64,000 nt of DNA from Impatiens glandulifera (Eukaryota; Streptophyta; Magnoliopsida; Ericales; Balsaminaceae), in assembly GCF_907164915.1 (NCBI RefSeq), contig NC_061868.1, positions 43,291,774-43,355,773 on the forward strand, given 5' to 3'. Under the pieces are notes generated by a model. That model was not told where the DNA came from. It saw only the letters and a list, made by a program, of their open reading frames with translations, and ran no database searches. The translations under genes were made by a program, and so were the position numbers. This document shows, piece after piece, positions 5,288 through 61,801 of this stretch (within the stretch, counting starts at the first letter, position 1; each line of letters begins with the position of its first letter).

Positions 5288-5790
5288 TAGTGTGTCATGT
5301 AAACTTGCTTTGTTTCAACCGTTAATTTTTTTTATTCGCAATCTTGTTGCAAGATTCTGTCTTGTTTGTAAAACTCTTGGCTGAATAAAATCTACTTGTA
5401 ATGGTTCAAACAAAGAACTAGAGTTTCATTTTCCATAAATAAACATTATTTGTCAATCTTACCTCTTCTTTTTCAATACTGTTTCATTCAAGTTCCATGT
5501 TCAAGTTCGATTCAATTTCAGAAAATGTGTCAAAACCCTGATATTGTAGGGATGGTTCAAGGAACATTTATTCCATTGTTTAATCTGGGAGAATGTTTTG
5601 GTGATTCTGACCAGAATTGAAGCTAGATTGAGAGAATATGAGCAAAAATAGACACTTGAGGTAATTCATAAACTCACTTTCCCTTCTTTTTCTGTTTTTA
5701 TTTGCATTAGAACAAATATATGACTGATCCGCGTTGGTAACACATTCGTTGCCAAAACATATTGCATTTTTATTGTTGCTTGTTCTTTAA
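5288..5790. other. 3' UTR of the small gene and spacer
   Basis: Contains the likely polyadenylation region of the 50-residue protein gene (GAATAAAATC near 5383) and AT-rich spacer. No gene seen. Confidence 0.5.
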
Positions 5791-6415
5791 GCCCTTGATA
5801 TTATCTCAGTAAATCGTTAATGGAATCCATAGGGCCAGGCAAACAATTCCTTTGAACTTTTGCATTTTTGTCAACAGCAAAAGGCTCAAACTGTCTATAC
5901 GGCCCAGGATGTCTTCATGTAGTATCTAACCTTTTCCATACTCATGAGTTCAATATTACGCATAACTTCATCCACGCTCCTTAAATCAACCTCGGTTCCT
6001 TGAATAGGAGATGTTCTATTGCAATTACCTTCACTAAACCATTTCCCATTCTCAAAATGGTCTGGAATTATTGTTCTGAAGAGGACACACCCTGTACTAT
6101 TCGAACTAGTCATGAATTTGAATACAAGCTGTAGGGTTTTCGATAAGCATATGTTCGAACCCTAACTCTGTTAGATCCTTACCTGGGCAGTAATGACAAC
6201 CACCGATCCTGTCAATCTCATAGTAAACCACAGTTTTATGAAACCATTTCCCACCGGAATTTACAATACAGTTGACCCGTCTAGCTAGTCGAGATGAATC
6301 AGATTGACTTGTGATGAAAAACTGTTTACATCTTCGAATATTTTAGGAGGAATGGTGTCCAAACTGTAAAGATTTCTTCAAATCTCTTTTTCCATCAATT
6401 CATGATAAATATGGT
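5791..6415 (-). pseudogene. Broken duplicate of the TBL gene 3' exon
   Basis: On the minus strand this stretch aligns with exon 2 of the intact TBL gene at 6885-7655, from the stop-codon end to the GGTGTCCA region near the exon start. It carries many small deletions and frameshifts. For example, about 20 bp are missing beside 5912, so the DGHPGPYR block is broken, and bases are lost around 6260-6300. Only a 72-residue piece stays open (5895-6113). The exon carrying the GDS active-site block has no counterpart here, so it cannot make an enzyme. It is a partial tandem duplication in the same orientation that lost constraint. Confidence 0.85.
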
Positions 6416-6884
6416 ATTTAACCCAATATTTAACACCAAACAAAAATACTACAATATTTTATTAAAACTAACTAATGTTAATTTAGATCAAAAACATATG
6501 AACTATATTACTTTAAAATAAGTTTTTTTTATCATAATAATAATATCATCCATTCAAGTTATGGGAGTTAGTTGAACTTTATTAATTATACTAGTCCATA
6601 AATTTGTAAGTGGCACATCCATTTCATTCTTTCCATTCTTCTTATTTTTATTTTATTATTATTCTTTTGGGTAGCTGAGTTATCTTTTCATAAGATTAAT
6701 AATGACATTACATTTATAAACATCACGGCTGGAAGTGGACCACATTCTAATAATGATTTTTAATATCGATTAAATTCAATTAAAATTGTTAAATACAACA
6801 TTTAAATGTAAGTGCATGAACAAATATATCACTCTTCCTCAACTGTTCTTGTGTTCTTCCTAATCCCGTTTGATTATTCAATCT
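6416..6884. other. AT-rich spacer between TBL pseudogene and TBL gene
   Basis: No gene. The right end probably contains the 3' UTR of the minus-strand TBL gene. Simple AT-rich sequence otherwise. Confidence 0.5.
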
Positions 6885-8268
6885 TTAACCTCTTGATATC
6901 ATCTCCAAGAGTAAATCGTTAATGGAATCCATAGGGCCGGGCAAACACCAATGCAAACAATCCGTTTGAACTTTCGCATTGTTATCGATAGCAAACGGTT
7001 GAAACTGTCGATATGGTCCAGGATGTCCATCGGGTCTAAGCAACAACATTCGGGTAGTATCTAACAATTTTATCGACAACCCTCCTTCAATTTTACTAAA
7101 CTCTTCGAGTTCAATATTACGCATAATTTCATCCACCCCTTTCAAATCAACAATCTCGGTTCTTTCAAAAGGAACCGTTCGATTGCAATAACCTCCGCTA
7201 AACCATTCCCCATTCTCAAAATGGTCTGGAGTCGTGGTTCTGAACAGTACATTAACGTTATAATGGTTTGAACTGGTGATCATGAATTTGAATATCAACT
7301 GTAGGGCTTTTCGATAAGCATGTTCGAACCCTAACTCCGTTAGATTCTTCTTACCCGAGCAATAATGACAACCCGTGATCGTGTTGTTCTCATAGTAGAC
7401 AGCTGTTTTGAGAAACCATTTCCCACCTGCGATTACAATGTAGTCGAAATCGGCAAAGTGTTGAGTCCATATCTGGTCTAGCTTGTCGAGATGAAGCTGA
7501 ATTACATCTGATGAAAAACCATTGGCATCTTCAAAGATTGAAGCTTTTAGGAGAAACGGTGTCCATATTACTGAAAGAGTAAAGTTGTGTATGGGAAAAT
7601 GCCATTTCTTTGATCTGTAGTCTTTATCATGGTAGATTTCATTTGCTTGTTCCACCTATATTACATTCATGAAGAAGAAAACTGTCAAGCTTAAATGATT
7701 GAATGCTGGATCAAGATTCAATTACCTGATAAAGGGAGCATAATAGAGATTGAACTTGATTGCGTGAAATGGAATCGCCAACAAATGCCCATGATTTATG
7801 TCGCATGAGATTGAGAAATTTGGTTGGATCGAACTTGGGTAAGTCGCAATGAAGAGGTTTCCATTTCCAGAAAAGGTAATCGAAATCTGGGCGGCCATTT
7901 TTAATGCAATTCTGATGATCTTCTATGAATGGACAAGTCTCATTTGTGTAAGCTGGACCGGAAGAGTCTTCTTCTTGTTGAACCCATAACCCATTAAATA
8001 TATCGCATTCCTGATGGTTGTGTTGGGATTCTGTTGAATTTTCCGGAGAATTGACGGTCGGAAACACTTGTTGTTGTTCGTTTTCCGATGTTGTAATTGT
8101 CTGAATAACAGAATCCTGGTCGGGTGAAGTATAGAACTGAATTGGTGTTGAGAAAAGGAGGAGAATTGCTAGAATGAAGAAGAGGAAACAAACAGTGAGT
8201 CTTAGGATTATGAGTTTTGGTTTTTGACCCAAGAATTGTCTCCTAATGAATCCATTATCAAGCATCAT
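6885..8268 (-). CDS. TRICHOME BIREFRINGENCE-LIKE polysaccharide O-acetyltransferase
   Basis: Two exons, 8268-7726 and 7655-6885, separated by a 70-bp intron, encode 437 residues, the usual TBL length. Residues about 19-40 are a hydrophobic signal anchor, as expected for a type II Golgi protein. The TBL domain starts near ECDIFNGLW. The PC-esterase domain has the nucleophile block FVGDSISRNQ (Ser166) and the C-terminal DCLHWCLPG block with Asp413 and His416, which complete the Ser-His-Asp triad. TBL proteins move acetyl groups onto hemicellulose in the Golgi. The second exon resembles the AXY4/TBL27 clade, whose characterised members acetylate xyloglucan; the position beside an R3-MYB and a GBF gene makes a TBL26-like ortholog likely. 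A broken copy lies just downstream. Exact substrate is inference. Confidence 0.9.
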
Positions 8269-21808: not shown

Positions 21809-22051
21809 TGTTGAATAAACTTAAATTAATAAGGTATTTGGTTTTTTTTATGTTTAATATTTCTAGAGTAATAATAAGAGGTGAGTGAGATAATCAAGAG
21901 TTTTGAGTGCAAACTATTTAATATGCAGAATAATTTATTTTGTTATTTGAAGAGTCAAGCATATGAAGAGTCTATGCTTTCTTATAAAAATTTGTAAAAT
22001 TCATTTGAGATGAATATAAGAAAGATATATTTTGGCATCTTGTTATTAACA
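21809..22051 (+). repeat. 5' LTR of the copia element
   Basis: 243 bp, starting TGTTGAATAAAC and ending CTTGTTATTAACA. It pairs with the LTR at 26235-26477. Confidence 0.95.
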
Positions 22052-22054
22052 AAT

Positions 22055-22204: not shown

Positions 22205-25200
22205 ATGACAGGTCTAACCAATGGAATCCCTCTACCCAAGTTGACAAAAGGCGTCAACTACGACAACTGGAAGGTGCAGATGAAGGCCTTTTTCGGTTTC
22301 CAAGATAACTGGGATGTGGTCGAGACTAGGCATGAGGAACCGGAGAACACAGATGGGTATTCAAATGCCCAGTTGAACACATTGAAGGTCGTTCGAGCTA
22401 AAGATAGGGCGGCTCTATATCTACTATACCGATCTGTCGACGAATCTGGTTTTGAGAAGATAGCTGACGCAAAATCTTCCAAAGTGGCATGGGATACACT
22501 CTAAATAGCAAACAAAGAAGATGAACGAGTGAAGCAAGTCCGACTTCAAACCCTAAGGGGCGATCTGGAAAATATGAGGATGAAAGAGTCTGAAAGCGTA
22601 TCTGAGTTCATTACTCGAGTGGAGACCGTGGTGAACAAACTAAATCGGAATGGTGAAAGTCTTTCATCAAACCGAGTTGTTGAAAAGATTCTGAGGTCAT
22701 TGACAGATAGTTTCGAAAATATTGTGTGCGCAATAGAGGAATCTAAGGATCTATCAACGCTCACCATTGAAGAGCTTGTTGGGTCTTTGGAAGCGAATGA
22801 GCAGAGAAAAAAAACAAGAAGGGGGAGTTTCTTGAACAGACTCTCCAGGCGAAGGCGACAATAAAAGAGGAGAAGGTACTTTATGCTCAGAGTACCAGAG
22901 GCAGAGGAAGAGGCATAAGCCTAGGTGGTAGAGGTGGACGAGGAAGTGAGCAAGTCGTCCAACAGAACTAGCATGGCAGAGGTCAAGCTCGGGGTGGCCG
23001 GACAAACACAAATAATAATATTGAGTGTTATAACTGTGGAAAGAATGGACATGTTGCCAAGGATTGTTACTCGATAAAATGTTACAATTGCGGAAAGCTG
23101 AGTCATATTTCCAAAGATTGTAGATCCGAGAAGAAAAATGAGGAACCAACAAACTTTTTTACTGAGAAAGAAGATGAAGGGTTGTTGCTGGTGACAAAAA
23201 TTCCAGAAACTGAGATCAAACCAAGCTGTTCTGATAACTCATTTTGGTACTTGGATATTGGGGCAAGTAACCACATGTGCGGCGACAAGAGCTTATTCAA
23301 AATACTCTCAAAGGTGGAGTCCGGATCCATTTCTTTCGGCGATGCTTCAAAAGTAGTCGTCAAAGGTCGATGAACGATCAGATATCAGCAGAAAAATGGG
23401 GGAATCGGAGAGATCAGAGATGTTTACTACGTACTTGATCTCAAAAGCAACATACTGAGCATGGGACACTTGATGGAGAAAGGGTACTCGGCTATAATGA
23501 AGGACCGAGAAATGCAGCTGAAGGATAAACTTTGGAGACTCATTGCCCAGGTAGAAATGAAGAAAAATCATATGTACAAACTTGAGCTTAAAATAGTTCA
23601 AGATAAATGTATGCAACTTGATCTAGAGGATGAGGCCATGAAGTGGCATTATCGGTTCGGTCATCTTCACTTCGGGGGGTTGAACGAGCTGGTGAAAAAG
23701 GAGATGGTTCTTGGACTGCCTAACATTATATTCGAAAAGAGGTTCTGTGAAGAATGTGTGATCGGGAAGCAAGCGAGGACTTCTTTCCCAAGCAGTTCTG
23801 AATACAGAGTAAATGAGCAACTCGGACTGATTCACACTGATTTATGTGGGCCAATAACTCCAGAATCATTTAGTGGTAAGAGATACTTCCTTTCTTTAAT
23901 TGATGATTTTTCGAGAAAGACGTGGGTTTATTTTCTGAAGGAGAAGTCAGAAGTGTTTGAAAACTTCAAGAAATTTAAAGTGATGGTGGAGAAAGAAACA
24001 AACAAAGTTATCAAAGCAGTCCGATCTGACAGAGGAGGTGAGTTCACTTCTAACGAGTTCAACAAATACTGCGAGGAACATGGAATCAAGCGTTTCTTGA
24101 CTGCTCCATATTCTCCGCAGCAAAACGGTGTAGCATAACGAAAGAACCGAACTATTCTCGATATGGTTCGATCTATGTTGAAAGGAAAAAATATGCCGAA
24201 ACAGTTTTGGGCAAAAAAGTACAGTGCGCAGTCTATGTGCAAAATAGATGTCCACATGCAAAGCTAGGAGAGAAGACGCCTCAAGAGATTTGGAATGGTA
24301 TGAAGCCGAGTGTCTTTCATCTCAAGGTATTCGGTAGTGTGGCCTATGGGAAAGTACCAAGTCAGCACAGGACAAAGTTAGAAGATCGAAGTAAGAAGTA
24401 CATATTTATCGGGTATGATGAAAAATCTAAGGCATATAAATTGTTTGATCCTATTAATAAGAAATTGGTGGTGAGTCGAGATGTTCACGTGGAAGAATCA
24501 ATGACATAGAACTGGAGTAACCCGATTGAAGAAGAAACAAGTTCAGAGGCTGTTATGCCTCCGACATCAACAACCACCGAGCTTTCAGAAGATGAATCTG
24601 AGCCTCTACAGCCCAGAATGAGAAGTCTACGGGAGATATATGACACTATAAATGAAGTCCACATTGTATGTCTTCTCGCCGACTCAGAAGATTTGAATTT
24701 TGAGAAAGCTGTACAAGACGAGAAATGGAGATCGGCTATGGATGAAGAAATTGGGGCAATTGAACGCAATAAAACCTGGGAGCTAACCGACCTTCCTGAA
24801 GGAACTCGACCCATTGGAGTAAAATGGGTGTACAAAAAAAAATGAATGTCGAAGGAGAGGTTGAGCGTTATAAGGCTCGACTTGTGGTGAAGGGCTATAG
24901 ACAAAAAGAGGGAATCGATTATGATGAAGTTTTTGCTCCTGTCATGAGAATGGAGTCAATCCGACTTCTGATCTCGTTAGCTGCTCAAAACCAATGGCTA
25001 ATTCTACAGATGGATGTGAAATCAGCATTTTTAAATGGAGTGTTGAAGGAGTAGGTGTACATCGAGCAACCACTTGGGTATATGAAGAGAGGTGATGAGA
25101 AGAAGGTGCTGAGATTGAGAAAAGCCCTCTATGGGCTGAAGCAGGCTCCTCGTGCTTGGAATGAGAGAATTGACGAGTATTTCAAGAAAAACGGGTACCA

Positions 25201-26218
25201 ACAATGTCCGTACGAGCATACCTTGTACACAAAGAAATCAGAAAATGATATGATGGTAGTCGCTCTCTATTTCGACGACCTCATATTCACCGGAAGTAAC
25301 ACTAAACTAATTGAGGAGTTCAAGGAGGTAATGAAGAAGGAGTTCGAGATGACAGACTTAGGTTTGATGAAATATTTTCTTGGCCTAGAAGTGAAGCAGT
25401 CGGAGGAAGGGATTTTTATATCCCAAGAGAGATATGCGCTTGAAATTTTAAAGAAGTTTAAAATGGAGGGCTGCCCTAGTTTCAACTCCAATGGAACCAG
25501 GCACTAAACTCTCAAAGTTTGATGGAGGAGAACGAGCTGATGCTGGGAGATATCGAAGTTTAGTCGGAAGTCTAAGGTATCTTACAAGCACGAGACCCGA
25601 CCTGATGTTGAGTGTTGGAATAACAAGCAGATTCATGGAGGACCCAAGCTATACACATTGGAAGGCCTTGAAGAGAATTCTGAGATATGTTCGAGGAACT
25701 CTTTCACTTGGTATTTTTATTCAAAATCAGATAACTACCGATTAGTGGGTTACTCTGATAGTGATTGGTGTGGTGATGTTGATGACCGGAAAAGTACTTC
25801 GGGTTATGTATTCCTACTCGGAAATACGGCTTTTACTTGGTTGTCAAAGAAGCAGCCTATTATAACTCTGTCGATCTGCGAGGCAGAGTATGTGGCGGCC
25901 TCTTGGAGTGTGTGTCATGCAGTATGGCTTTCAAATCTACTAAAGCATTTGGGAGTGATCCGAGATGAAGAGACTGTGATTCGAGTTGATAACAAGTCGG
26001 CGATCGAGTTGGCAAAGAATTCAGTTAATCACGGAAGGAGCAAGCACATTGACGTACGATTTCATTTCATTCGAGAACAAGTCAAAGAAGGAAAGGTTGA
26101 GTTGGAGCATGTTGAAAGTCGAGCTCAAGCCGCTGACATATTCACCAAGCCATTACCGACCACACTGCTGGAGAGTTGTAAAAGGCTAATTGGAATGAGA
26201 GATGGGAAGAATATTTAA
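22205..26218 (+). pseudogene. Copia gag-pol polyprotein, multiply interrupted
   Basis: Starts at ATG 22205. Gag core with NYDNWKVQM is followed by two CCHC zinc knuckles (23026-23121), and the protease active-site block reads DIGAS near 23254 instead of D-T/S-G. Next come the HHCC zinc finger with CEECVIGKQ, and an integrase core with HTDLCGP and SDRGGEF. The third catalytic residue, Glu in the NGVA-E-RKN block, is a stop codon (24136-24138). Reverse transcriptase spans about 24770-25500 with [11 protein letters not shown] and a YFDDL active-site box. RNase H spans about 25740-26130 with SDSDWCGD, ending in the KHIDVRFHFIRE block. Other interruptions: stops at 22502, about 22861, 22969, 23371, 24507 and 25052, a poly-A frameshift at about 24831-24842 and further shifts near 25505 and 25743. 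No active product is expected. Confidence 0.93.
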
Positions 26219-26234: not shown

Positions 26235-26475
26235 TGTTGAATAAACTTAAATTAATAAGGTATTTGGTTTTTTTATGTTTAATTAATCCTAGAGTAATAA
26301 TAAGAGGTGAGTGAGATAAGCAAGAGTCTTGAGTGCAAATTATTTAATATGCAGAATAATTTATTTTGTTATTTGAAGAGTCAATCATATGAAGAGTCTA
26401 TGCTTTTTTATAAAAAGTTGTAAAATCCATTTGAGATGAAAATAAGAAAGATATATTTTGGCATCTTGTTATCAA

Positions 26476-26477
<2 letters not shown>
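26235..26477 (+). repeat. 3' LTR of the copia element
   Basis: 243 bp, TGTTGAATAAAC to TGTTATCAACA. Near-identical to the 5' LTR. Confidence 0.95.

Positions 26478-26519
<42 letters not shown>
26478..26519. repeat. Poly(A) run next to the copia 3' LTR
   Basis: 42 consecutive A bases between the LTR end and CTGACC. It probably grew by slippage from an A-rich target-site duplication. Confidence 0.9.
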
Positions 26520-43193: not shown

Positions 43194-44043
43194 TGTTAGA
43201 ACTTATTCTATTCGTTGTTAGTGTTATTGTCTTGAAATAACAGAAAATATATATACATACGATGTTACAAATAAATAAAAATAAAATAAGATATACGAAG
43301 AACAATATCACCGTATTTGATGTTGATTCGAGGTATGTGCTTGACACATTTCCCATAAAACAGTTCCACCATCTCCCGTTTGTGCTGGAGCTTATCGTAG
43401 ATGGCTGTCTCCCAGGGTACAACGAATCCAGTAGTGATTCTGCACTGAAATCACTACTCGTCGAGCTTGATCAGTGTACCTGAACTATCACCGGGTTTCA
43501 ACGGAAAATATCGAGCGAAGAACTCAAAGAACACTCATAAAATTAGAAGAGGACTTTTGGAATTCTAGAGTGAGAAAAATTAAGGATGAAGTGTTTTGTA
43601 AAATGAATAATGAATGGGTATATATTGTTGAAAAGTTAAACCATTAAATAAAATCATCATTTGATCCAACGGTTGACATTGTTTGCCTCTTCATTACCTT
43701 AACGTTTTTCTCTTCATTATAGAGTAATTGTTTTCCAAAACAATTAAGGCATTTACAATTCAATACTAACGTTACATGGTTTTCCAATTTGTTAATAATA
43801 ATATTAATTATCATAACAAATAATAATAATAACAAACTCATGTAATTTACACTACAAATTAACAACATTTTATTAATTGGTCATCAAAGTATTTTAGATC
43901 AATTAATTTAAATTATACATTTGGATCAAATTTCACATTTAATTCACGTTTGAATTTCATGTGAATTTGATTTGATTTTATTACCCACATTCTAATTTCC
44001 ATTCATTAATGGAATTTATAGAATCAGTTTAAAAATTCCAACA
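43194..44043 (-). repeat. Left LTR of the non-coding element
   Basis: 850 bp. Near-identical to 48229-49082. Includes GATCCAACGGTTGA (43663-43676). Small open frames within it (43262-43483 plus, 43117-43422 minus) recur in the other LTR only because the DNA is duplicated. Confidence 0.93.
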
Positions 44044-48228: not shown

Positions 48229-49082
48229 TGTTAGAACTTATTCTATTCATTGTTAGTATTATTGTCTTGAAATAACAGAAAAATATATATACATACGATG
48301 TTGCAAATAAATAAAAATAAAATAAGATATACGAAGAACAATATCACCGTATTTGATGTTGATTCGAGGTATGTGCTTGACACATTTCCCTTAAAACAGT
48401 TCCACCATCTCTCGTTTGTGCTGGAGCTTATCGTAGATGGCTGTCTCCTAGGGTACAACGAATCCAGTAGTGATTCTGCACTGAAATCACTACTCGTCGA
48501 GCTTGATCAGTGTACCTGAACTATCACCGGGTTTCAACGGAAAATATCGAGCGAAGAACTCGAAGAACACTCACAAAATAAGAAGAGGACTTTTGGAATT
48601 CTAGAGTGAGAAAAATTAAGGATGAAGTGTTTTGTAAAATGAATAATGAATGGGTATATATTGTTGAAAATTTAAACCATTAAATAAAATCATCATTTGA
48701 TCCAACGGTTGACATTGTTTGCCTCTTCATTACCTTAACGTTTTTCTTTTCATTGTTTTCCAAAACAATTAAGGCATTTACAATTCAATACTAACGTTAC
48801 ATGGTTTTCCAATTTATTAATAATAATATTAATTATCATAACAAATAATAATAATAACAAATTCATGTAATTTACACTACAAATTAACAACATTTTGTTA
48901 ATTGGTCATCAAGGTATTTTAGATCAATTAATTTAAATTAATTGATTTAAATTATACATTTGGATCAAATTTCACCTTTAATTCACGTTTGAATTTCATG
49001 TGAATTTGATTTGATTTTATTACCCACATTCTAATTTCCATTCATTAATGGAATTTATAGAATTAATTTAAAAATTCCAACA
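48229..49082 (-). repeat. Right LTR of the non-coding element
   Basis: 854 bp. It differs from the left LTR by an 11-bp deletion near 48754, a small AATTGATTTAAATT duplication near 48940 and scattered substitutions. Under the minus orientation this is the 5' LTR. Confidence 0.93.
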
Positions 49083-52164: not shown

Positions 52165-54399
52165 GTGAATATAGAAGGGGTGGGAAAAGCAATTTACATA
52201 AACTATAGTGAAAAAAATAACTTTTATTAATTAAAATAATAAGTTACCCATAACAAAAAAAAATAACTTACAAAGAATACAAAATAACCTAATAAAATAT
52301 TAAAAAAAAAGTTCGATTAACTCAAAATAAACATCATTTCACTCCACTTATAATTCAACACAATTTATTAACTAAGATAATATTTATTTTAAATTATTAA
52401 TTTTATTATTATATATTAACCACCTTTAAGTATTTTTTTTAAAAAAATCACCTCTTTAAAATTATTATTATTTTTTCTCTCCGAAATTCCTAACAAAAAC
52501 TTAATATTAAATAATATTATAAATAAAAGTGGAGAGAAATTCAACCATTTTAAAATTTAAGTAAATCTCTAAATACAAACTCGTTTGAGTTTTATAATTA
52601 TAAGTGGGGAAGTAGAATAAATCGAACAAACTAACGGTATCAAAAAAATCTCAACAAAAAATATTCTGAAAAACATTGAAAATTGTTCTTATTCGTGGTT
52701 GATAAACAACGCCGAATATATAAGAGGCCAGAAGGAATGTATGATACATATAAGAGGCCATTCAAAAAAATATATCAATTACAATCATTCATTATAAAGC
52801 AAAAGAAAAACAATTTCCGTTCATACAATTTCATCTCATTTACAATTGACGGGTACTATCAATAAGCAAACACCCTGATACTAGAAGAAGAAGTCATACA
52901 AAAAAAACTTTTGACTAAGGATTTTTAATATTTTTGAAAAGATGATGCATTTCTATAAAAAAAAACTAGTTTATTCGTTAATTTATTTATTTATTTTGAT
53001 TATATAATTTGTATTTTGTAGCATGTATTATGGTGAAAGAGACATGGACGGATATATATATATATGTTGGGGGCCAAAACATGATTATATCTTTAATTTT
53101 TTTTTAAAAATTAATATAATTTATTGTTTGTTTTCTTAATTATTAAAAAAATGGTAAAATTTACCTTTATCTATTTGTTTTATCCACAATTTTCTCGTTA
53201 TATTTTAAACTTATCTTAATTTTTTTCAAACTTAATCCAATTATGAATCATGGATTCATCCCTAGAAAGAGATCATATTAACATAGTACATTATAAATAA
53301 ACAAGATATTTACTTAGAAGTAACACTAAAGAAACAATATAAATTTGAAATTAGATCTCAAATCTATCTATATTTGAAAATAGATCTCAATTCTAACTAT
53401 AATTATAAATCCAACTTAACTATGTTAACATATGATCTGTTTAATTTGTAAGTGTCTTTAACCATGATTCTTTCAGTTGAATCCCAATTATTCAATTTTC
53501 CATTGATGTTCTCAATTCTCATAGAGTTGTTATATATAATATATATATATATACATATAATATGATGCAATCTTGTTTAAGTTATTGTAATAAATATTGA
53601 GATTTTATGTCACAAAGAAGGGATGTAATCTCTATAGATATTAGCCCATTTAAAAAAATATTGTATTTCCTATTCTGGTAAATAAATTCAGGTAATCTGT
53701 GTAATCTGGACTATATTTTAAAATCTTAATCATCAACTTATTTTATTTTTCCTTTTTCTTTTTTTACTTTATCACACAAAATATTACAGGAATCTGCTTA
53801 ATATACACACAATTTGGGCATATAATCTACAACAATTAGAAACATTAATTAATTTTCATTTCTTGTAATCTTTTTTGGCATCATTCTTGAAATCAAGAAG
53901 ATTGCTACAAAGTGTTGTTTGATTTTGTTCCTTTTTTTAAAATAAAAAAAAATCACAAATTGCATTTTTTTCCTTTCAAATATTCAATTAATCCATCAAA
54001 ATACCTTTATTTTAATTTTATAAAATTTAAATTTTAAATATAAAAACTTTATAATTCAACCAACTAAAACTCAAATCACATAATTTTTTTTATTAAATAT
54101 ATATTTTTTAAATTAATAAAATATTAAATAACCCAATATCAAACAAGCTCTTACACAAATCTTTGTTAGGAGCATAAGAGCCGTAATCAATGTGCAAGAA
54201 AACCATATAAATAATTTAATTAACAGCTGTATAATAAAAATAGTTTATTTGAAATATATATATTTAATGTTTGGAGTTCACCTTATAAATAAGGTTAAAT
54301 GAGATTACAATAGATTTTGGCAATCCAATAAGAGTATATAAATACAATTTCTCATAAACATAAAATATATATTCTTGTCACAAATTGTTGTCCCATTGT
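52165..54399. other. AT-rich region upstream of the response-regulator-like gene
   Basis: No gene. The part 52900-53460 is related to 49690-51130. The last kilobase is the promoter of the response-regulator-like gene; AGTATATAAATACAA at about 54332-54346 is a plausible TATA box about 60 bp before the start codon. Confidence 0.5.
54332..54346 (+). promoter_or_regulatory. Candidate TATA box of the response-regulator-like gene
   Basis: AGTATATAAATACAA, a good match to the plant TATA consensus, about 55-65 bp upstream of ATG 54400. It would give a very short leader. Confidence 0.4.
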
Positions 54400-55797
54400 A
54401 TGGACCATAAAATGAATCCAACTGTCGCCCACCACCAAGATCTTGGTCACAAGTCTTCTCGGTCGGGATTGTGCGTGCTCGTGGTGGATTCTAGTCGCGT
54501 ATGTCTTACAATCACGTCAACAATTCTTTCGATTTACAAATATAAAGGTACAATTGTGTTAAGATTTGTGACGTTTTATCTTTGACACAACAATTTGTAA
54601 ACAATATTGTGTACACGTTTTGTATATAGTTATCGTTGCTCGATATGGTGTACAAGCCTTGTCTATGATACGACAAAGCAAGATTAAGATTGATCTTGTC
54701 ATGACGGAGTTTCTCTTGCCCGACATGTGTGGAATTGAGTTAATGGAAAAAGTCCGTGAATTGAAAAAAATGCCGATTGTTTGTGAGTATCATTAATCTT
54801 CCTTTAATTGTTTTTTTTCTTCTTTATTTGATAATGCTAACGCAATTGTTTGTTCTAATTTTGTAGTTCTTTCTAGTTTTAGAAATATTGGAGAGAAAAT
54901 GCAATGTTTGTCGAAAGGGGGTGATTTTTGTTATGAAAAACCGATGTCCATGAAGGAAGCAAAGTTGTTATGGCAGTTTAAGATTTTAAATGTAAGAGGT
55001 ACGACATATGGTAATGTTAAGGAGTTGCCTTCGTTGAAACTAGAAGAGGTTGTCGAGGTCACCTCGAAGAAGAGGAGGATCTTTTGGGCGACAGAATTTT
55101 ATGGTAAATCCATTAAGGCTGGTGAAGGAACAAGCATGAAAGGTATGTATATAATATTTGTTCAATAAGTTGTTTGTTTTGTGTTCAATAGTTTTTGTTT
55201 TGTACATTTGATAATGTTGAAAATTTGTGCTTAATTAGATGTTCGTGCCAATAATGCACCTAAAATTGCGAAGATCGACAATCAAATTTGTGGCAGCATC
55301 TCAAGCCGTATGCAGGTTTGATTAGGCTAGAAGAAATCTCAATTAAGTTTATATCTAATTTAAAACATTCTTTCTCATTTTGCGAAAATTTTATATTTGG
55401 CATGAAACAGAACCGAAAGGAAGGTTTGCAACATGCGGATTCTATAAATGCAACTCGAATCGATACAACCTTAAGATTACGTGTCGGATCACATGAAGAT
55501 CTTTGTAATCTTAAAAATACCCAATTCAGAAGGACCGTTAATGACATCAAAAAACAAGATGATGCGATCAAAATCAAAGAGGAAAGTTTGTTAACTCTGA
55601 GTTTGCGCTTTGGATCTCAGATCTCCGACGAGAACATGAACACTAACAGCAAAGTAGTCGATGATTCAAAATTAGAGGCGAGTGATGCTGCAAGTTCAAG
55701 CGCTGCACAAGAAGATTGTGTGGCTTATAACCCAATTAATCGTGGTCGGATTCCAAGAATGGGGAACATTGATCTAATGAGCCATCATCATGTCTAA
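54400..55797 (+). CDS. Diverged type-B response-regulator-like protein (pseudo-receiver)
   Basis: Five exons, 54400-54547, 54630-54782, 54867-55142, 55239-55315 and 55411-55797, join in one frame to 346 residues. Residues 24-137 are a receiver domain: LCVLVVDSSRVCL, IDLVMTEFLLPDMCGIELM, IVFLSSF and DFCYEKPMS. The acidic pair is reduced (D30 kept, next position Ser31) and the phosphoacceptor is Glu76 instead of Asp; Ser103 and Lys125 are kept. So it should not take phosphate from cytokinin-type phosphorelays. After it, KKRRIFWATEF (168-178) and SSRMQ (214-218) occupy the places of the GARP/Myb motif start and its SHLQ helix, with an intron exactly after the Gln, as I recall for GARP genes. The 128-residue tail is Ser/Asn/Lys-rich and unrecognised. 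Either a fast-evolving pseudo-response regulator or an old gene losing function. Joins were made by hand. Confidence 0.72.
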
Positions 55798-56214: not shown

Positions 56215-56899
56215 TCATCTTGAGTCTTGACTAGCCTCTCCCACGGCTACATGATGATGATGAAGAGGCGATTCGGGTGATGAAGGTAGTATTGGCGATC
56301 TAACATAGTACTTTGTTATGAAGGATTCATGATGAATTGGGAGGCGACAAACAGGACAAGTTGAATGTTTCCTCAACCATAAATCTATACAACCTATGTG
56401 GAAATTATGCCCACAACCAGGCAATATTCTCAACACCTGTTTCTCCTCATATTCCCCAAGACATATACTGCACCTGCAATTGTCAACCAATTCTTGAATC
56501 AAAAACAAAAACATAAACAAAAACAAACAATAGTTTTCATTCTTAATCAAATCACTCACTCTGCATCTTCTATGGAGCCCAAACCCTGTTGACTGAACTT
56601 CACAGTCGGTATAGCAGCCACCACACCATCTTCAAGTCCATCCCTCCTTCGTTGCTCTGCAGGCTGCTAGTTTAACAATCTCATTAAACTAATCTAATAA
56701 TGAAGATGGGTTCAAATCAAATTTTCATTTTTCTTACCTGTTCAATATCATTAATAGAGATCTCCAACATCTGCCTTGATGATTCTGCTCTTCTTCGAAT
56801 TCGTCCACAGATCAGTCTGCTGCATACAAATATGATGAAAGTTGCACTCATGCCGAACCCAATTATTGTAGTGATCAGATTTGTGCCTGAACCAAACAT
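56215..56899 (-). CDS. Membrane-anchored RING-H2 E3 ubiquitin ligase (ATL-like)
   Basis: Three exons on minus, 56899-56738, 56666-56560 and 56473-56215, give 175 residues. A hydrophobic segment near the N-terminus (about residues 8-31, LITTIIGFGMSATFIIFVC) is a membrane anchor, followed by a basic RIRRR. Then a GLEDGVVAAIPTVKF block, in the position of the GLD region of ATL proteins, precedes the RING-H2: CSICLGEY, then CGHNFHIGCIDLWL and HSTCPVC, with the C-C-C-H-H-C-C-C order and the Trp after the sixth ligand. The tail is His/Ser/Pro-rich (SPESPLHHHHV). Such proteins transfer ubiquitin from E2 enzymes at membranes. Exon 2 starts at a tandem acceptor (TAGCAG), so two isoforms differing by one Gln are possible. 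The substrate is unknown. Confidence 0.88.
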
Positions 56900-59400
56900 C
56901 TCAACTCTTCTGAAACAATAACAAGCTATGAAATGATGATGATGATGTTGATGATGATGGGGAGGAGGAGGAACAGTTATTCAATCTGAAAAGAAAAGAA
57001 TGAAGAACCCAGATCAAGATTGATCCAAATTCTAAACAAAGCTGCCCAATTGGAAATTAAACAGATTTCTTCAGTTGGGGTAAAAATCGGAGCTTGGGGA
57101 GCCATGAACAGATGGATGTGGTTAAGAAATGAACAGAGAAGGGTCCGAATTAGATTGAAGAAGAAAAAGAAGATCTGATCCTCTCCTTTTCTTCTTGTTT
57201 TGAACTTTCTTCAATCAGGGGTGGGTCATAATTTCAAGTCATTGTCATGTGGGGGATCGGACGGTTAAGGTATTCACTTTGGGAATATGACGGCTGGTTG
57301 AGATATCATCGGACGGTTGGATGTCAATTGTGGATTCATTACCTTCTTAGTGACTATTTTTAGATAAAAGAATCTACAAAAAGACTTTCCCTCATCGGCA
57401 ACCTACAACCAAATATTGTTTTTAATTAATCAAGGATTAACAAAATAGAACCAAATGTATTTCAAGATTTTCAATTATAACTTAAAAGTTTTTTTACATT
57501 CACAATTTCATCTTGCTCATTTATTGTTTTGATTTGAGTTCCAGAAAATTAATCCATCAAAATATCATTCATAATAGAAGTCAATTTAGGTTAAATTCGA
57601 TTCATGATGAATTACTTTTTTTCAATTATAGAGACATAATTAACTTGTAAAAAAGCTAATCATGATTACCTTACCTACATTCACTCATTAACACAGCTAT
57701 TTCTTAATTATTACACTATTTTATTTTACAAATAAAATTTATTATTTGCATAAGTAATTAAGGCCAACACAAACCCTGGTTATCAAGTTCACCCTCTTAA
57801 ATCATATTTTTTTAGTTTTTTAAAGTGTAAATTGAATTTAAAATATTTTTTATCTAAGATGTATTGAGTTATTAAATTATTTATAATTTTTATGCAGTTA
57901 TTATAATGATTTGATATTACTAGTTAATCTTTAAAAACAATACTCATTTTTTTAGTAAAAGGTTCATGTTTGTTCATCTAGCATACTTGTGTATATGGAT
58001 TTAATATTTGGTGTCTAACAGTAAAAACGATCGAATTCGAATAAACTGAATTTAATTTTTTTTTTGTTTTTTAATTTAATTTTAAATTAAAAATATGTTT
58101 TTTATTTGATTTTCAAGTTAAGATTTTAACTCGAAAACCAAACCAAAATTATTTTTTATTATATAATTTATTACGCATAATTAAATAATTATATTTAATT
58201 TATTATATAATATATTAAAAAAATCGTTCGAATTTGAACGAAAATTAAATTCGAATTCGGTTCAATTTTATTATAATTTATTCGAATTTGGTTCGGTTAA
58301 CAAAAATAAAATTCAAAGAAATTGAACCGGATAACTTATATAACTCGAAAACAGATTCGAATACCCCTATTTGTGTGCAAGTAAACTTGATTAATGTCTT
58401 ATTTGTTCGTACCAATTTTGGTTTTGTTTATATATTTATGTAAAATTGAAATGAAATATTTAATGGTCCTTGTTCTTAGGCTCGATTTTGGAGTAAGCCC
58501 AATACACCCTCAGGATAGGGCAGTTCATTTAATAAAACATATAAGATATTTAGAAAATTATATAGTTTTTAAAAACATAAAATATTCTAGCTTAGAGGTT
58601 GATGATATAAACTTAGAATTTTTATTTAGTTATATGTTTAAATCTCATTAAATTTCTTTTATTTTTTATTAATTTTTGAAATTAGACTTAGGACAACATA
58701 AAAAAAATTAAATCTCACCTAAAAAAAATTATTTTACAGAAGACTAAAGCAGTCCAAAACTTAGAACTATTCTGTGTTCTTATTTGTTGAAATCAATTTT
58801 GGTTTTATTTATATATATGTCTGTAAATATTAAATGAAACATTCAATGCTCCTAGTGTGGTGTGAACATAATAATTTATTGAAGACATTTTGAATTTGGT
58901 TGAAGTCCAAACTATATACTATTTCAAATAAAATCAAGAAAATAAAAGAATCATTAAGTTTTTGGAGTTCGATTCTATACCATATGAGGAAGGTAAAACT
59001 AAAAACAGGAAATGGTAAATAATTATATTAGGTAAAAATTCCAACTGTAATAAATAAATGTCAGTAGTTTAACTTATTTGTAAATATTCAAATGAAAAAA
59101 TATGCATGGATGCCAAATTTCATTTGAATTAAACTATTTTGAATCATTGCCACGAACACACGACAGCTTATTCTTGGAAAATGAGCAATCTTTTTTAACC
59201 GTTTCCATAATCTATACACATGGCCTGGGCTGGATTTCTAGGAACAAGTTTTTTATTCTAAAATTCAAATTTCATTTAACAATCTCAACGGTCAAATTAC
59301 TGTTTCCATTTCAAATAAATTACTGTTCCCATCTCAAAATCACAGCCGTCGGATCCTTTCATGGCCCACACTAGTTATTAACACTTTCCCCCCATTCTAG
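56900..59400. other. RING gene leader and promoter, then AT-rich intergenic DNA
   Basis: The part 56930-57200 is the leader and promoter side of the minus-strand RING gene (GATGATGATG run near 56936-56960, AAGAAGAAAAAGAAG near 57157-57172). Two GATCGGACGG/CATCGGACGG motifs occur at 57255-57268 and 57307-57322. From 57360 to 59380 I see no gene. Confidence 0.5.
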
Positions 59401-59804
59401 AGAGAGAGTGTGACGTGTCTCCCGACAGGAGTGCATCCTCTCTGACATTTTCTCCGAGAAAAATTTGATTTTTGAATTATGATCGTTGTTTTGTTGGAGG
59501 TCCCCCTTCCATCTTCTTCTTCTTCTTTAACCTAAAGAAAGCTCTTTCTCTTTCCTCGCTTCCTTTTCAAGATTCACTATCTACGGCTAGGAAGGATCAA
59601 GAACCCATCGGAGCTACCTTCCCTGTTTCAGAAACAGAAGAAGAAGAAAGATTGATTCTTTCTTGTTTATTTTTACGAACAGGTAAGATTCATAGCTTCA
59701 ACCAAGAGGGTTTTCTTTTCTTTTCTGCATCTTGTTTTCATGGTTTCTATTTTCTTAATAAATTCATTCATGCAGCTGTTTATATTCAATCTAGACTAGT
59801 AACA
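59401..59804 (+). other. Promoter and leader of the armadillo-repeat gene
   Basis: A GA run (AGAGAGAGAGTG near 59400) and TGACGTGTC at 59411-59419 precede the leader. Within the leader CAGGTAAGATTC near 59680 and TTCATGCAG near 59768-59776 look like a donor and acceptor, so a leader intron of about 95 bp is likely. The frame open upstream of the ATG is therefore probably untranslated. Confidence 0.5.
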
Positions 59805-61481
59805 ATGGCGGATGATGATGATTACGTGTGTAACGACGACGTTTTGATCTCAACTGAAGATTTACTATCCTCTGCCTTAAAGCTAGTTCCAACGGCGGTT
59901 GAAAAGGCTAAGCTTGTTAAAGGGTTTCAAGCAAAATGGAAGATGATAATTTCAAAACTTGAACAGATCCCTTCACGTTTATCAGATTTATCATGTCATC
60001 CATGTTTTTCCAAGAACACTCTCTGTAAAGAACAATTACAGACAGTTTCCATCACTCTGAAAGAAGTAATCCAGTTAGCTGAAACGAGTATCGCCGAGAA
60101 ATTTGAAGGGAAACTTCAAATGCAGAGCGATTTAGATGCCTTGATCGGAAAACTTGACTTGAATTTGAAAGACTGTAGCTTGCTAATCAAAACCGGCATG
60201 CTTGTAGACGTTACAGTCCCTGTTTCAATTCCAATTTCAATTTCTCCGTCGCCGCATGGAAATATCAGGGAACTACTAGCCCGTCTGCAAATTGGGCATT
60301 TGGAATCCAAACAGAAAGCTCTCGAAACGTTAATCGAAATCATGCGAGATGATGAAAAGATGGTTTTTTCCGTTCTGGGTCGGAGCAATGTCGCTGCTTT
60401 GGTTCAATTACTAACAGCAACTTCTCCTCGTATGCGAGAAATGACGGTTTCTGTTCTTTGTTCTTTAGCCGAATCAGGAAGCTGCGAGAATTGGTTGATT
60501 TCAGAAGGTATTCTTCCACCTTTAATCAGACTACTTGAATCCGGTAGTTCATTCGGTAAAGAAAAAGCTGTTATCTCCCTTCAAAGACTATCAATGTCAC
60601 CGGAAACCGCAAGATCAATCGTCGGCCATGGAGGAATCCGACCACTAACAGAAATCTGTAGATTTGGCGATTCCGTTGTTCAATCCTCCGCCGCTTGTAC
60701 TCTGAAAAACATATCAACCCTACCCGACGCCAGACAAACATTAGCAGACGAATCAGTGGTAAAACTAATGATTGAACTCTTAAACATCGGATCATTATTA
60801 GGCACGAAAGAATACGCAGCCGAATGTCTACAAAACCTAACATCAACCAACGACAGTCTCCGGAAAGCTGTAATCTCCGCCGGCGGTGTCAAGAGTTTGT
60901 TGGATTACATCGACAGTCCATTCCCACAAGAACCGGCGATTGGGGCGGTAAAAAATTTGGTTAGTTTAATGTCAATTGAAGTTCTGACATCTATGGGTTT
61001 GATTCAACGTTTAGTTCATGTTTTGAAATCTGGGTCGCCGGGTGCTCAACAATCGGCGGCGGCGACTGTTTGTAAGATTTGTGGGTCGATTGAGATAAAG
61101 AGGTTGATGGGTGAAGCGGGTTGTATTCCGTTTTTGATAAAGATGCTTGAAGGGAAAACTTATACAGGTAGAGAAATGGCGGCTCAAGCTATTTCGATCT
61201 TGATTGTTGTTCCTCAAAATTGTAGGGAAGTTAAGAAGGATGATAAGAGTGTTCCTAATTTGGTTCAATCGCTTGATCCGAGTTTACAGAATACGGCTAA
61301 GAAATATGCGATTGTTTGTTTGACTGCGATATCGACTAGTAAGAGATGTAAAAAGGGTATGATTTCTTATGGGGCAATTGGGTATCTTAAGAAGCTAAGT
61401 GAAATGGAAGTGGTTGGGGCTAAGAAGCTTCTAGATCGATTGGAGAGAGGGAAGATTAGAAGTTTCTTTAGTAGGAAATGA
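59805..61481 (+). CDS. Armadillo-repeat protein without U-box
   Basis: An intronless frame of 558 residues from ATG 59805. Upstream in-frame sequence is interrupted by a probable leader intron, so this ATG, followed by MADDDDYVCNDD, is preferred. Residues 1 to about 150 are a helical N-terminal region like that of plant U-box/ARM proteins, but no U-box is present. From about residue 160 a run of roughly nine to ten ARM repeats follows. Clear examples are NIRELLARLQIGHLESKQKA, AALVQLLTATSPRMREMTV, ILPPLIRLLESGSSFGKEKA and GGIRPLTEICRFGDSVVQSS. The C-terminus is basic (GKIRSFFSRK). It recalls Arabidopsis ARM proteins such as At2g45720 (from memory), whose role is not established. Expected to be a protein-interaction scaffold. 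Confidence 0.88.
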   Translation: MADDDDYVCNDDVLISTEDLLSSALKLVPTAVEKAKLVKGFQAKWKMIISKLEQIPSRLSDLSCHPCFSKNTLCKEQLQTVSITLKEVIQLAETSIAEKFEGKLQMQSDLDALIGKLDLNLKDCSLLIKTGMLVDVTVPVSIPISISPSPHGNIRELLARLQIGHLESKQKALETLIEIMRDDEKMVFSVLGRSNVAALVQLLTATSPRMREMTVSVLCSLAESGSCENWLISEGILPPLIRLLESGSSFGKEKAVISLQRLSMSPETARSIVGHGGIRPLTEICRFGDSVVQSSAACTLKNISTLPDARQTLADESVVKLMIELLNIGSLLGTKEYAAECLQNLTSTNDSLRKAVISAGGVKSLLDYIDSPFPQEPAIGAVKNLVSLMSIEVLTSMGLIQRLVHVLKSGSPGAQQSAAATVCKICGSIEIKRLMGEAGCIPFLIKMLEGKTYTGREMAAQAISILIVVPQNCREVKKDDKSVPNLVQSLDPSLQNTAKKYAIVCLTAISTSKRCKKGMISYGAIGYLKKLSEMEVVGAKKLLDRLERGKIRSFFSRK

Positions 61482-61603: not shown

Positions 61604-61800
61604 CTTCTAGTTTTGAAAGTAGAACAAAATTGTAGAACAAAATTGATCAAAGTGTTTTTTAAAGTTTAAACCATAACATAATGAAATTTCATGATTTTAG
61701 TACTTCTAGTTTTGAAAGTAGAACAAAATTGTAGAACAAAATTGATCAAAATATTTTTTAAAGTTTAAACCATAATATAATGAAATTTCATGATTTTAGT
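61604..61800. repeat. 99-bp tandem duplication downstream of the ARM gene
   Basis: Two copies, 61604-61702 and 61703-61800, each starting CTTCTAGTTTTGAAAGTAG and containing the internal doublet GTAGAACAAAATTG. A few substitutions separate them. It lies just past the likely polyadenylation site of the ARM gene. Confidence 0.88.
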
Positions 61801-61801
61801 A

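What the first reader, a model, noticed from the sequence alone, without database searches (positions are those of the whole stretch)
54400..55797. Five-exon response-regulator-like gene with a Glu phosphoacceptor and an eroded GARP domain
Seen: hand-joined exons stay open for 346 codons. The receiver fold is recognisable, but the second acidic-pocket residue is Ser and the phosphoacceptor is Glu76. The GARP motif is reduced to KKRRIFW at one end and SSRMQ at the other, with an intron directly after the Gln. Known: Glu at the acceptor marks pseudo-response regulators, and GARP genes as I recall have an intron after SHLQ. Inference: a type-B ARR descendant that no longer takes phosphate and may no longer bind DNA, yet keeps a full frame. 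That makes it a candidate constitutive or dominant-negative regulator, or a gene early in decay.
Basis: partly seen in the sequence, partly recalled or inferred. Interest (0 to 1): 0.75.

Follow-up and report, generated by a model that had tools for sequence, protein, structure and literature searches.

The report
Phosphate-blind response regulator that lost DNA-binding
This is an intact, already catalogued balsam gene that looks like a decayed form of a plant hormone-response switch: it has lost the site that takes phosphate and most of its DNA-binding part, and similar degenerate copies lie elsewhere in the same genome.

Summary
Five GT-AG exons at 54400-55797 give a 346-codon frame. NCBI holds the same protein from Met5: Impatiens glandulifera "two-component response regulator ARR10-like", 342 aa. 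All four intron positions coincide with break points in annotated plant type-B response regulators. The receiver is clear (Pfam E 1.2e-14). Ser31 and Glu76 stand where 120 of 120 and 112 of 120 type-B relatives have Asp. The GARP region keeps its length but only 9 of 51 consensus residues.

The genome explains it. Ten other loci share the DS motif and the Glu and form one clade (eight rows tested, 100/100), so both changes are inherited. Two siblings are open with a better-kept GARP, two show no GARP, six are broken or shifted. Window-sibling dN/dS is 0.38-0.44 in the receiver, 1.0-1.3 in GARP (dS near saturation, intervals overlap slightly). Most likely: a phosphate-independent receiver protein whose DNA-binding domain was released from selection. 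Glu-bearing type-B regulators are already known (PMC6518804). A second, apparently independent loss of the Asp in this genome is the more interesting by-product.

The parts
54335..54341 (+). TATA-like sequence, with CCAAT at 54325, 65 bases upstream of the first ATG
   Evidence: consensus only; TATATAT and TATAAAT also occur nearby in this AT-rich stretch, so weak
54400..54547 (+). exon 1: N-terminus and first part of receiver, D30-S31; the NCBI protein starts at the second ATG (Met5, 54412)
54630..54782 (+). exon 2: receiver core with Glu76 at the phosphoacceptor site
54867..55142 (+). exon 3: end of receiver with K125-P126, linker, GARP N-terminal arm and helix 1 remnant KKRRIFWATEF
55239..55315 (+). 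exon 4, 77 nt: eroded remainder of GARP, ending SSRMQ
   Evidence: a 77-nt exon also in the intact paralog L033
55411..55797 (+). exon 5: 128-residue C-terminus without a recognised domain, and the stop codon

Best explanation
The gene is an intact member of a family of degenerate type-B-like response regulators in Impatiens glandulifera. Shown: all ten siblings found also have DS in place of DD and Glu in place of the phosphoacceptor Asp; in this member the GARP region kept its length and exon but lost most consensus residues; the receiver is confidently foldable, and over the divergence from its siblings it evolved under constraint. Inferred: the protein cannot take phosphate on Asp and cannot bind type-B target DNA. 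If made, it works only by phosphate-independent contacts of its receiver (with phosphotransfer proteins or other regulators), as a weak modulator and not as a transcription factor. The family undergoes birth and death.
For: Receiver: Pfam E 1.2e-14; AlphaFold block pLDDT 86-97 over P0001 residues 21-130, against 34-54 for the blocks that hold the GARP region (161-220). A GARP-intact control (P0090, itself a Glu-bearing protein) folded with the same 40 sequences gives 92-97 over residues 221-270 of its GARP. Family: 10 paralogous loci, all with Glu; clade support 100/100 for the 8 rows used. L033 is an intact five-exon paralog with the same 153-nt exon 2 and 77-nt exon 4. GARP consensus matches: window 9/51, L033 17/51, L026 22/49, L032 25/49. 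dN/dS window-L033: receiver 0.38 (bootstrap 0.15-0.65), GARP 1.30 (0.56-2.68); window-L026: 0.44 (0.22-0.70) and 1.00 (0.52-1.94); L033-L026: 0.38 and 0.59. In a neutral simulation of point changes the frame carries 3.6 stops on average after 0.1 substitutions per site, and none in 2.1% of runs. ARR2 with W221 and HLQ263-265 replaced by Ala did not activate (PMC10454580, passages); by my mapping the window gene keeps W174 and Q218, has Arg for that His and Asn for the next Lys.
Against: No transcript evidence was available. Pairwise dN/dS averages two lineages and receiver dS of 1.1-1.5 is near saturation, so recent loss of constraint is not excluded. GARP intervals for the window gene are wide, include values below 1 and overlap the receiver intervals at the edge. 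Low pLDDT of the GARP region may partly reflect lack of close relatives in the alignment. The Glu form of ARR22 had no dominant effect, so receiver-only action may be feeble. Contact with phosphotransfer proteins was not tested in any way.
Confidence: 0.6

Rival explanations
1. The gene is a dying duplicate: constraint ended recently and the open frame is only a leftover.
For: Of ten sibling loci, five carry stops or frameshifts (L025, L027, L028, L029, L032), L024 has a frame change in exon 4 under the exon mapping used, and L030 and L031 show no GARP match in 6 kb. The protein cluster has one member sequence on one contig. GARP dN/dS about 1.
Against: All five exons, eight splice sites and the frame are intact after a long divergence; the fraction of 2000 bootstraps with receiver dN/dS of 1 or more is printed as 0.000 for both window pairs.
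Confidence: 0.27
2. A constitutively active transcription factor, Glu76 acting as a phosphomimic.
For: [quoted passage not shown]
Against: That needs a working DNA-binding domain; here 9 of 51 GARP consensus residues remain, Pfam finds no Myb/GARP and the fold is not predicted with confidence. Ser31 also alters the acidic pocket.
Confidence: 0.05
3. The family descends from the APRR2-like pseudo-response regulators, where Glu is usual, and not from an ARR1/10/12-type gene.
For: Siblings L026 and L032 match the GARP of APRR2 (letters recalled) at 39% and 42% identity. Summed over the two separate BLAST pieces APRR2 reaches 98 bits for L026 and 102 for L032, about as much as the best ARR-type single alignment (96 and 105). 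In a 12-row tree APRR2 lies on the path between the family and the canonical proteins. APRR2 has Glu (PMC6518804).
Against: By best single alignment ARR types win: window 75 vs 33 bits, L033 92 vs 42, L030 (receiver only) 74 vs 54. Long branches meet in the tree, so it decides nothing. The search for the Impatiens APRR2 ortholog did not complete.
Confidence: 0.3
4. A splice-model artefact or an unrelated family.
For: None found; no RNA reads could be mapped.
Against: The NCBI protein agrees; intron positions match type-B break points; paralog L033 has the same structure.
Confidence: 0.02

Closest known systems
Type-B response regulators ARR1/ARR10/ARR12 (Arabidopsis) and plant relatives
   Same: Receiver, linker, GARP position, 51-residue GARP length, all four intron positions
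   Different: No phosphoacceptor Asp, Ser31 in the acidic pocket, GARP 9/51 consensus, short C-terminus
Non-canonical RRBs of Medicago and other legumes (PMC6518804; sections 7 and 10 read, passages elsewhere)
   Same: D-to-E at the acceptor, tandem clusters, members without DNA-binding domain (MtRR31 and MtRR32 are receiver only with Glu), some possibly decaying
   Different: Impatiens is not a legume; here Glu is combined with an eroded but full-length GARP region
ARR23 (Arabidopsis), as described in PMC7402358 (passages)
   Same: Type-B receiver without a complete GARP; suspected pseudogene
   Different: ARR23 has 145 residues and a typical receiver; this one has 346 residues and a non-canonical receiver
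APRR2
   Same: Glu at acceptor plus Myb-like (GARP) domain
   Different: APRR2 keeps its DNA-binding domain; whether the family descends from it is open (APRR2 letters recalled)

Membership tests
Type-B response regulator (canonical) | Receiver domain | tested here: met
   Pfam PF00072 54.8 bits, cut-off 30.2; ARR1 best solved match
Type-B response regulator (canonical) | Phosphoacceptor Asp and acidic pair DD | tested here: not met
   E76 and S31
Type-B response regulator (canonical) | GARP/Myb DNA-binding domain | tested here: not met
   No Pfam match at E up to 1; 9 of 51 consensus residues; not folded with confidence while the control is. DNA binding itself not tested
Type-B response regulator (canonical) | Long transactivation region (200-500 residues in authentic RRBs, PMC6518804) | tested here: not met
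   128 residues after the GARP, commonest Ser, Asp, Asn, Leu
Non-canonical type-B response regulator (D to E/N) | Groups with type-B proteins, acceptor replaced | tested here: met
   exact root and placement relative to APRR2 open
APRR2-like | Groups with APRR2 in a tree | tested here: inconclusive
   with a recalled APRR2 sequence
Clock pseudo-response regulator | C-terminal CCT domain | tested here: not met
   No CCT among Pfam matches at E up to 1
Functional expressed gene | Spliced transcript | not testable with these tools
   No reads available; only the NCBI protein

The most novel reading that the evidence does not exclude
Impatiens has at least twice independently turned type-B regulators into multi-copy, phosphate-blind receiver families: the window family (Glu), and a second one, mostly on contig C5, in which the acceptor is Glu or the site is deleted. 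In the window gene the receiver is kept by selection while the DNA-binding domain is shed, giving a class of receiver-only modulators outside legumes.
Probability: 0.4. Interest if true: 0.5.

Novelty: new member of a known kind. Interest (0 to 1): 0.33.

Why it matters
The authors of the legume survey left open whether enrichment of non-canonical type-B regulators is legume-specific (PMC6518804 section 10). Among 36 loci that I examined in this asterid genome and count as type-B-like by their receiver (window, L024-L043, L064-L078), the acceptor was readable in 35: 15 Asp, 14 Glu, 6 with a two-residue deletion at the site. These are loci, including fragments, pseudogenes and one possible assembly duplicate, found by two searches that score only the best candidates, and not a census; GARP-only matches, an exon-1-only match on C367 and the weak matches at C3:24.35 Mb (L079, Asp) and C4:60.38 Mb were left out. 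They suggest that the answer is no, and they give a graded series of GARP loss in one genome.

Tried and rejected
Glu76 as a new step in this gene: rejected, all ten siblings have it. A frameshifted but otherwise good GARP: none seen in the other two forward frames. Homolog search: of 37 hits only the gene's own entry bears a plant name, the other 36 are at most 33% identical; the receiver-only search gave 1 hit among 28 candidates, itself. So relatives had to come from the genome itself. Literature, listings only: one search gave one paper holding Impatiens, type-B response regulator and cytokinin, on adventitious rooting by its title; the seven papers do not mention Impatiens; one search listed 12 of 379 papers, of which only the legume paper looked relevant. 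Bacterial promoter scan: uninformative for a plant. Rows dropped from the tree: L025, L027, L028, L036, L070 and L078-L083 (broken, partial or other classes).

Full report
Joining 54400-54547, 54630-54782, 54867-55142, 55239-55315 and 55411-55797 gives 1041 nt with GT-AG at every intron and an open frame of 346 codons. Of 37 hits in the protein search one bears a plant name: an NCBI entry of Impatiens glandulifera, two-component response regulator ARR10-like, 342 aa, identical from Met5 on. The style of the name suggests a RefSeq prediction; that is my inference. The length of its contig, 50,848,190, equals that of contig C7, on which the window lies. So the gene is already annotated, with a protein that implies these exons. 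One search gives the taxonomy: asterids, Ericales, Balsaminaceae.

The receiver is unmistakable: Pfam Response_reg at E 1.2e-14 over residues 26-131, and the best solved-structure match is ARR1 (8xat, E 4.4e-12). The eight Glu rows are models from Solanum dulcamara (2) and Citrus sinensis (6), which otherwise keep DDD and a GARP.

The GARP region is a true remnant. The 51-residue register 168-218 scores z 5.6 against shuffles and ranks first of 296 registers, but the signal is in exon 3 (KKRRIFWATEF, z 5.7); exon 4 alone gives z 2.0. The intron positions give independent support. The four introns fall at codon 50 phase 1, codon 101 phase 1, codon 193 phase 1 and codon 219 phase 0. Annotated models of other plant type-B proteins carry insertions or deletions that start or end exactly there: P0057, P0061 and P0062 at 49/50; P0062 and P0079 from 102; P0082, P0084, P0085, P0087 and P0088 at 192/193, with P0083 lacking 159-192; P0081 lacking 183-218. 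The other ends of those deletions (158/159, 114/115, 182/183) match no intron of the window gene, and linker insertions were not counted. I read the matching ends as retained or skipped exons.

The same 40 sequences were used to fold the window protein (as P0001) and, as a control, P0090, a Glu-bearing type-B protein with an intact GARP. Both receivers reach block means of 90 or more over most of their length. The control GARP reaches 92-97 over residues 221-270. The blocks that hold the GARP region of the window protein (161-220) reach 34-54, and block means of its C-terminus stay below 50. The contact residues listed for ARR2 (PMC10454580, passages read) map, by my ungapped alignment, as W221 to W174 (kept), S262 to S215 (kept), H263 to R216, Q265 to Q218 (kept), K266 to N219, R268 to K221, I269 to E222, R272 to Q225. 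An ARR2 mutant with W221 and HLQ263-265 replaced by Ala did not activate its reporter.

The genome search with P0001 found paralogous exons, 38-53% identical over the exon-2 matches, in clusters on C6, C4 and C5 and singly on C7 and C1. Ten loci were fetched. All ten carry Glu at the acceptor and DS in place of DD. L033 is an intact five-exon paralog of 307 residues with exons of 145, 153, 333, 77 and 216 nt; its 77-nt exon reads AVHAKKIQQVMNVSDVTLGQIAIHLM, clearly GARP-like. The other nine were read by mapping the exons of L032 through an alignment, so alternative starts or splice sites were not tried. L026 is open with a recognisable GARP and stops soon after it. L030 and L031 keep receiver and linker, and no GARP match was found in their 6 kb. 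L024 has a frame change in exon 4, L032 a stop in exon 1. L025, L027, L028 and L029 carry stops or frameshifts. GARP consensus matches are 9/51 for the window gene, 17/51 for L033, 22/49 for L026 and 25/49 for L032.

Selection was estimated by NG86 on pairs. Window against L033: receiver 0.38 (bootstrap 0.15-0.65), GARP 1.30 (0.56-2.68). Window against L026: 0.44 (0.22-0.70) and 1.00 (0.52-1.94). L033 against L026: 0.38 and 0.59. The C-terminus of window and L033 gives 0.44, on 71 poorly aligned codons with dS 2.9. Receiver dS lies between 1.1 and 1.5, so absolute values are unsafe. The contrast between domains within a pair is less exposed to that, but its intervals overlap at the edge. In a neutral simulation of point changes (no indels) the frame keeps no stop in 2.1% of runs after 0.1 substitutions per site and in none of 1000 after 0.5. 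I infer that constraint lasted over most of this gene's history; whether it lasts today is not shown.

A search with an Ericales ARR12-like protein (P0130) found the ordinary type-B genes and two further divergent groups. Reading the acceptor in 36 loci taken as type-B-like by receiver (window, L024-L043, L064-L078; L070 unreadable) gave 15 Asp, 14 Glu and 6 with a two-residue deletion at the site, which the aligner shows as a gap in five and as Gln in one. A tree of receiver exons 2 and 3 (37 rows) puts the window family on one branch (8 rows, 100/100) and the C5 group on another (9 rows, 100/99), the latter joined with four Asp-bearing C4/C2 loci (95/97). On this tree the Asp was lost at least twice. 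L034 and L035 are identical in the compared exons and may be one locus assembled twice; the long stem of the window family (about 1.9 changes per column) makes its exact root unsure.

Origin within the type-B class is open. With a recalled APRR2 sequence, the best single BLAST alignment favours ARR types (75 against 33 bits for the window protein, 92 against 42 for L033), but APRR2 aligns in two pieces whose sum equals the ARR-type score for L026 and nearly so for L032 (98 against 96, 102 against 105). In a 12-row tree APRR2 lies between the family and the canonical proteins, with long branches meeting. The decisive search for the Impatiens APRR2 ortholog did not complete.

Compared with what is known: Glu stands at the acceptor in 25% of 138 RRBs of the legume survey, and receiver-only members with Glu exist there (PMC6518804, sections 7 and 10 read). 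ARR23 is an Arabidopsis case without a complete GARP (PMC7402358, passages). ARR1 D94E is a strong constitutive activator (PMC3907372, passages), but that needs a DNA-binding domain. The glutamate form of ARR22 was not dominant negative; the same text cites an occasional dominant-negative effect of ARR5 D87A (PMC6370222, passages). The window gene is therefore a further member of a known kind. Its value lies in the graded family around it and in the hint that such expansions occur outside legumes.

Noticed in passing
L068, L069, L071-L077 (contigs C5 and C7 of the same genome): A second multi-copy group of type-B-like receivers with Glu or a two-residue deletion at the acceptor (IIEAKLLDMD / ITQTKHMVDF), on a separate branch from the window family.
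   Followed up: partly
L064-L067 (C4 and C2): Four divergent type-B-like copies that keep Asp but have MNEMDG or MNEIDG for MPDMDG; sister to the C5 group.
   Followed up: partly
window 56215-56980, minus strand: RING-H2 finger gene next to the finding (Pfam zf-RING_2 E 2.4e-14 in the frame at 56218-56631).
   Followed up: no
window 59469-61481, plus strand: Long open frame with DUF7032 and armadillo repeats.
   Followed up: no
window 23374-26218, plus strand: Copia-type retrotransposon pieces (integrase and RVT_2), with 245-base stretches 95% alike at 21809-22053 and 26235-26479 that look like LTRs.
   Followed up: no
window 43194-44043 and 48229-49082: Direct duplication of about 860 bases at 95% identity.
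   Followed up: no
window 5784-7655: Tandem-like repeat (69% identity) over a PC-esterase gene.
   Followed up: no
window 61604-61801: Two head-to-tail copies of a 99-base unit, 96% matches.
   Followed up: no
P0080 (Solanum dulcamara) and P0086 (Citrus sinensis): Both annotated proteins match the window receiver twice, at 35-153 and 385-501 in P0080 and 16-131 and 481-596 in P0086: possible two-receiver models or fused predictions.
   Followed up: no
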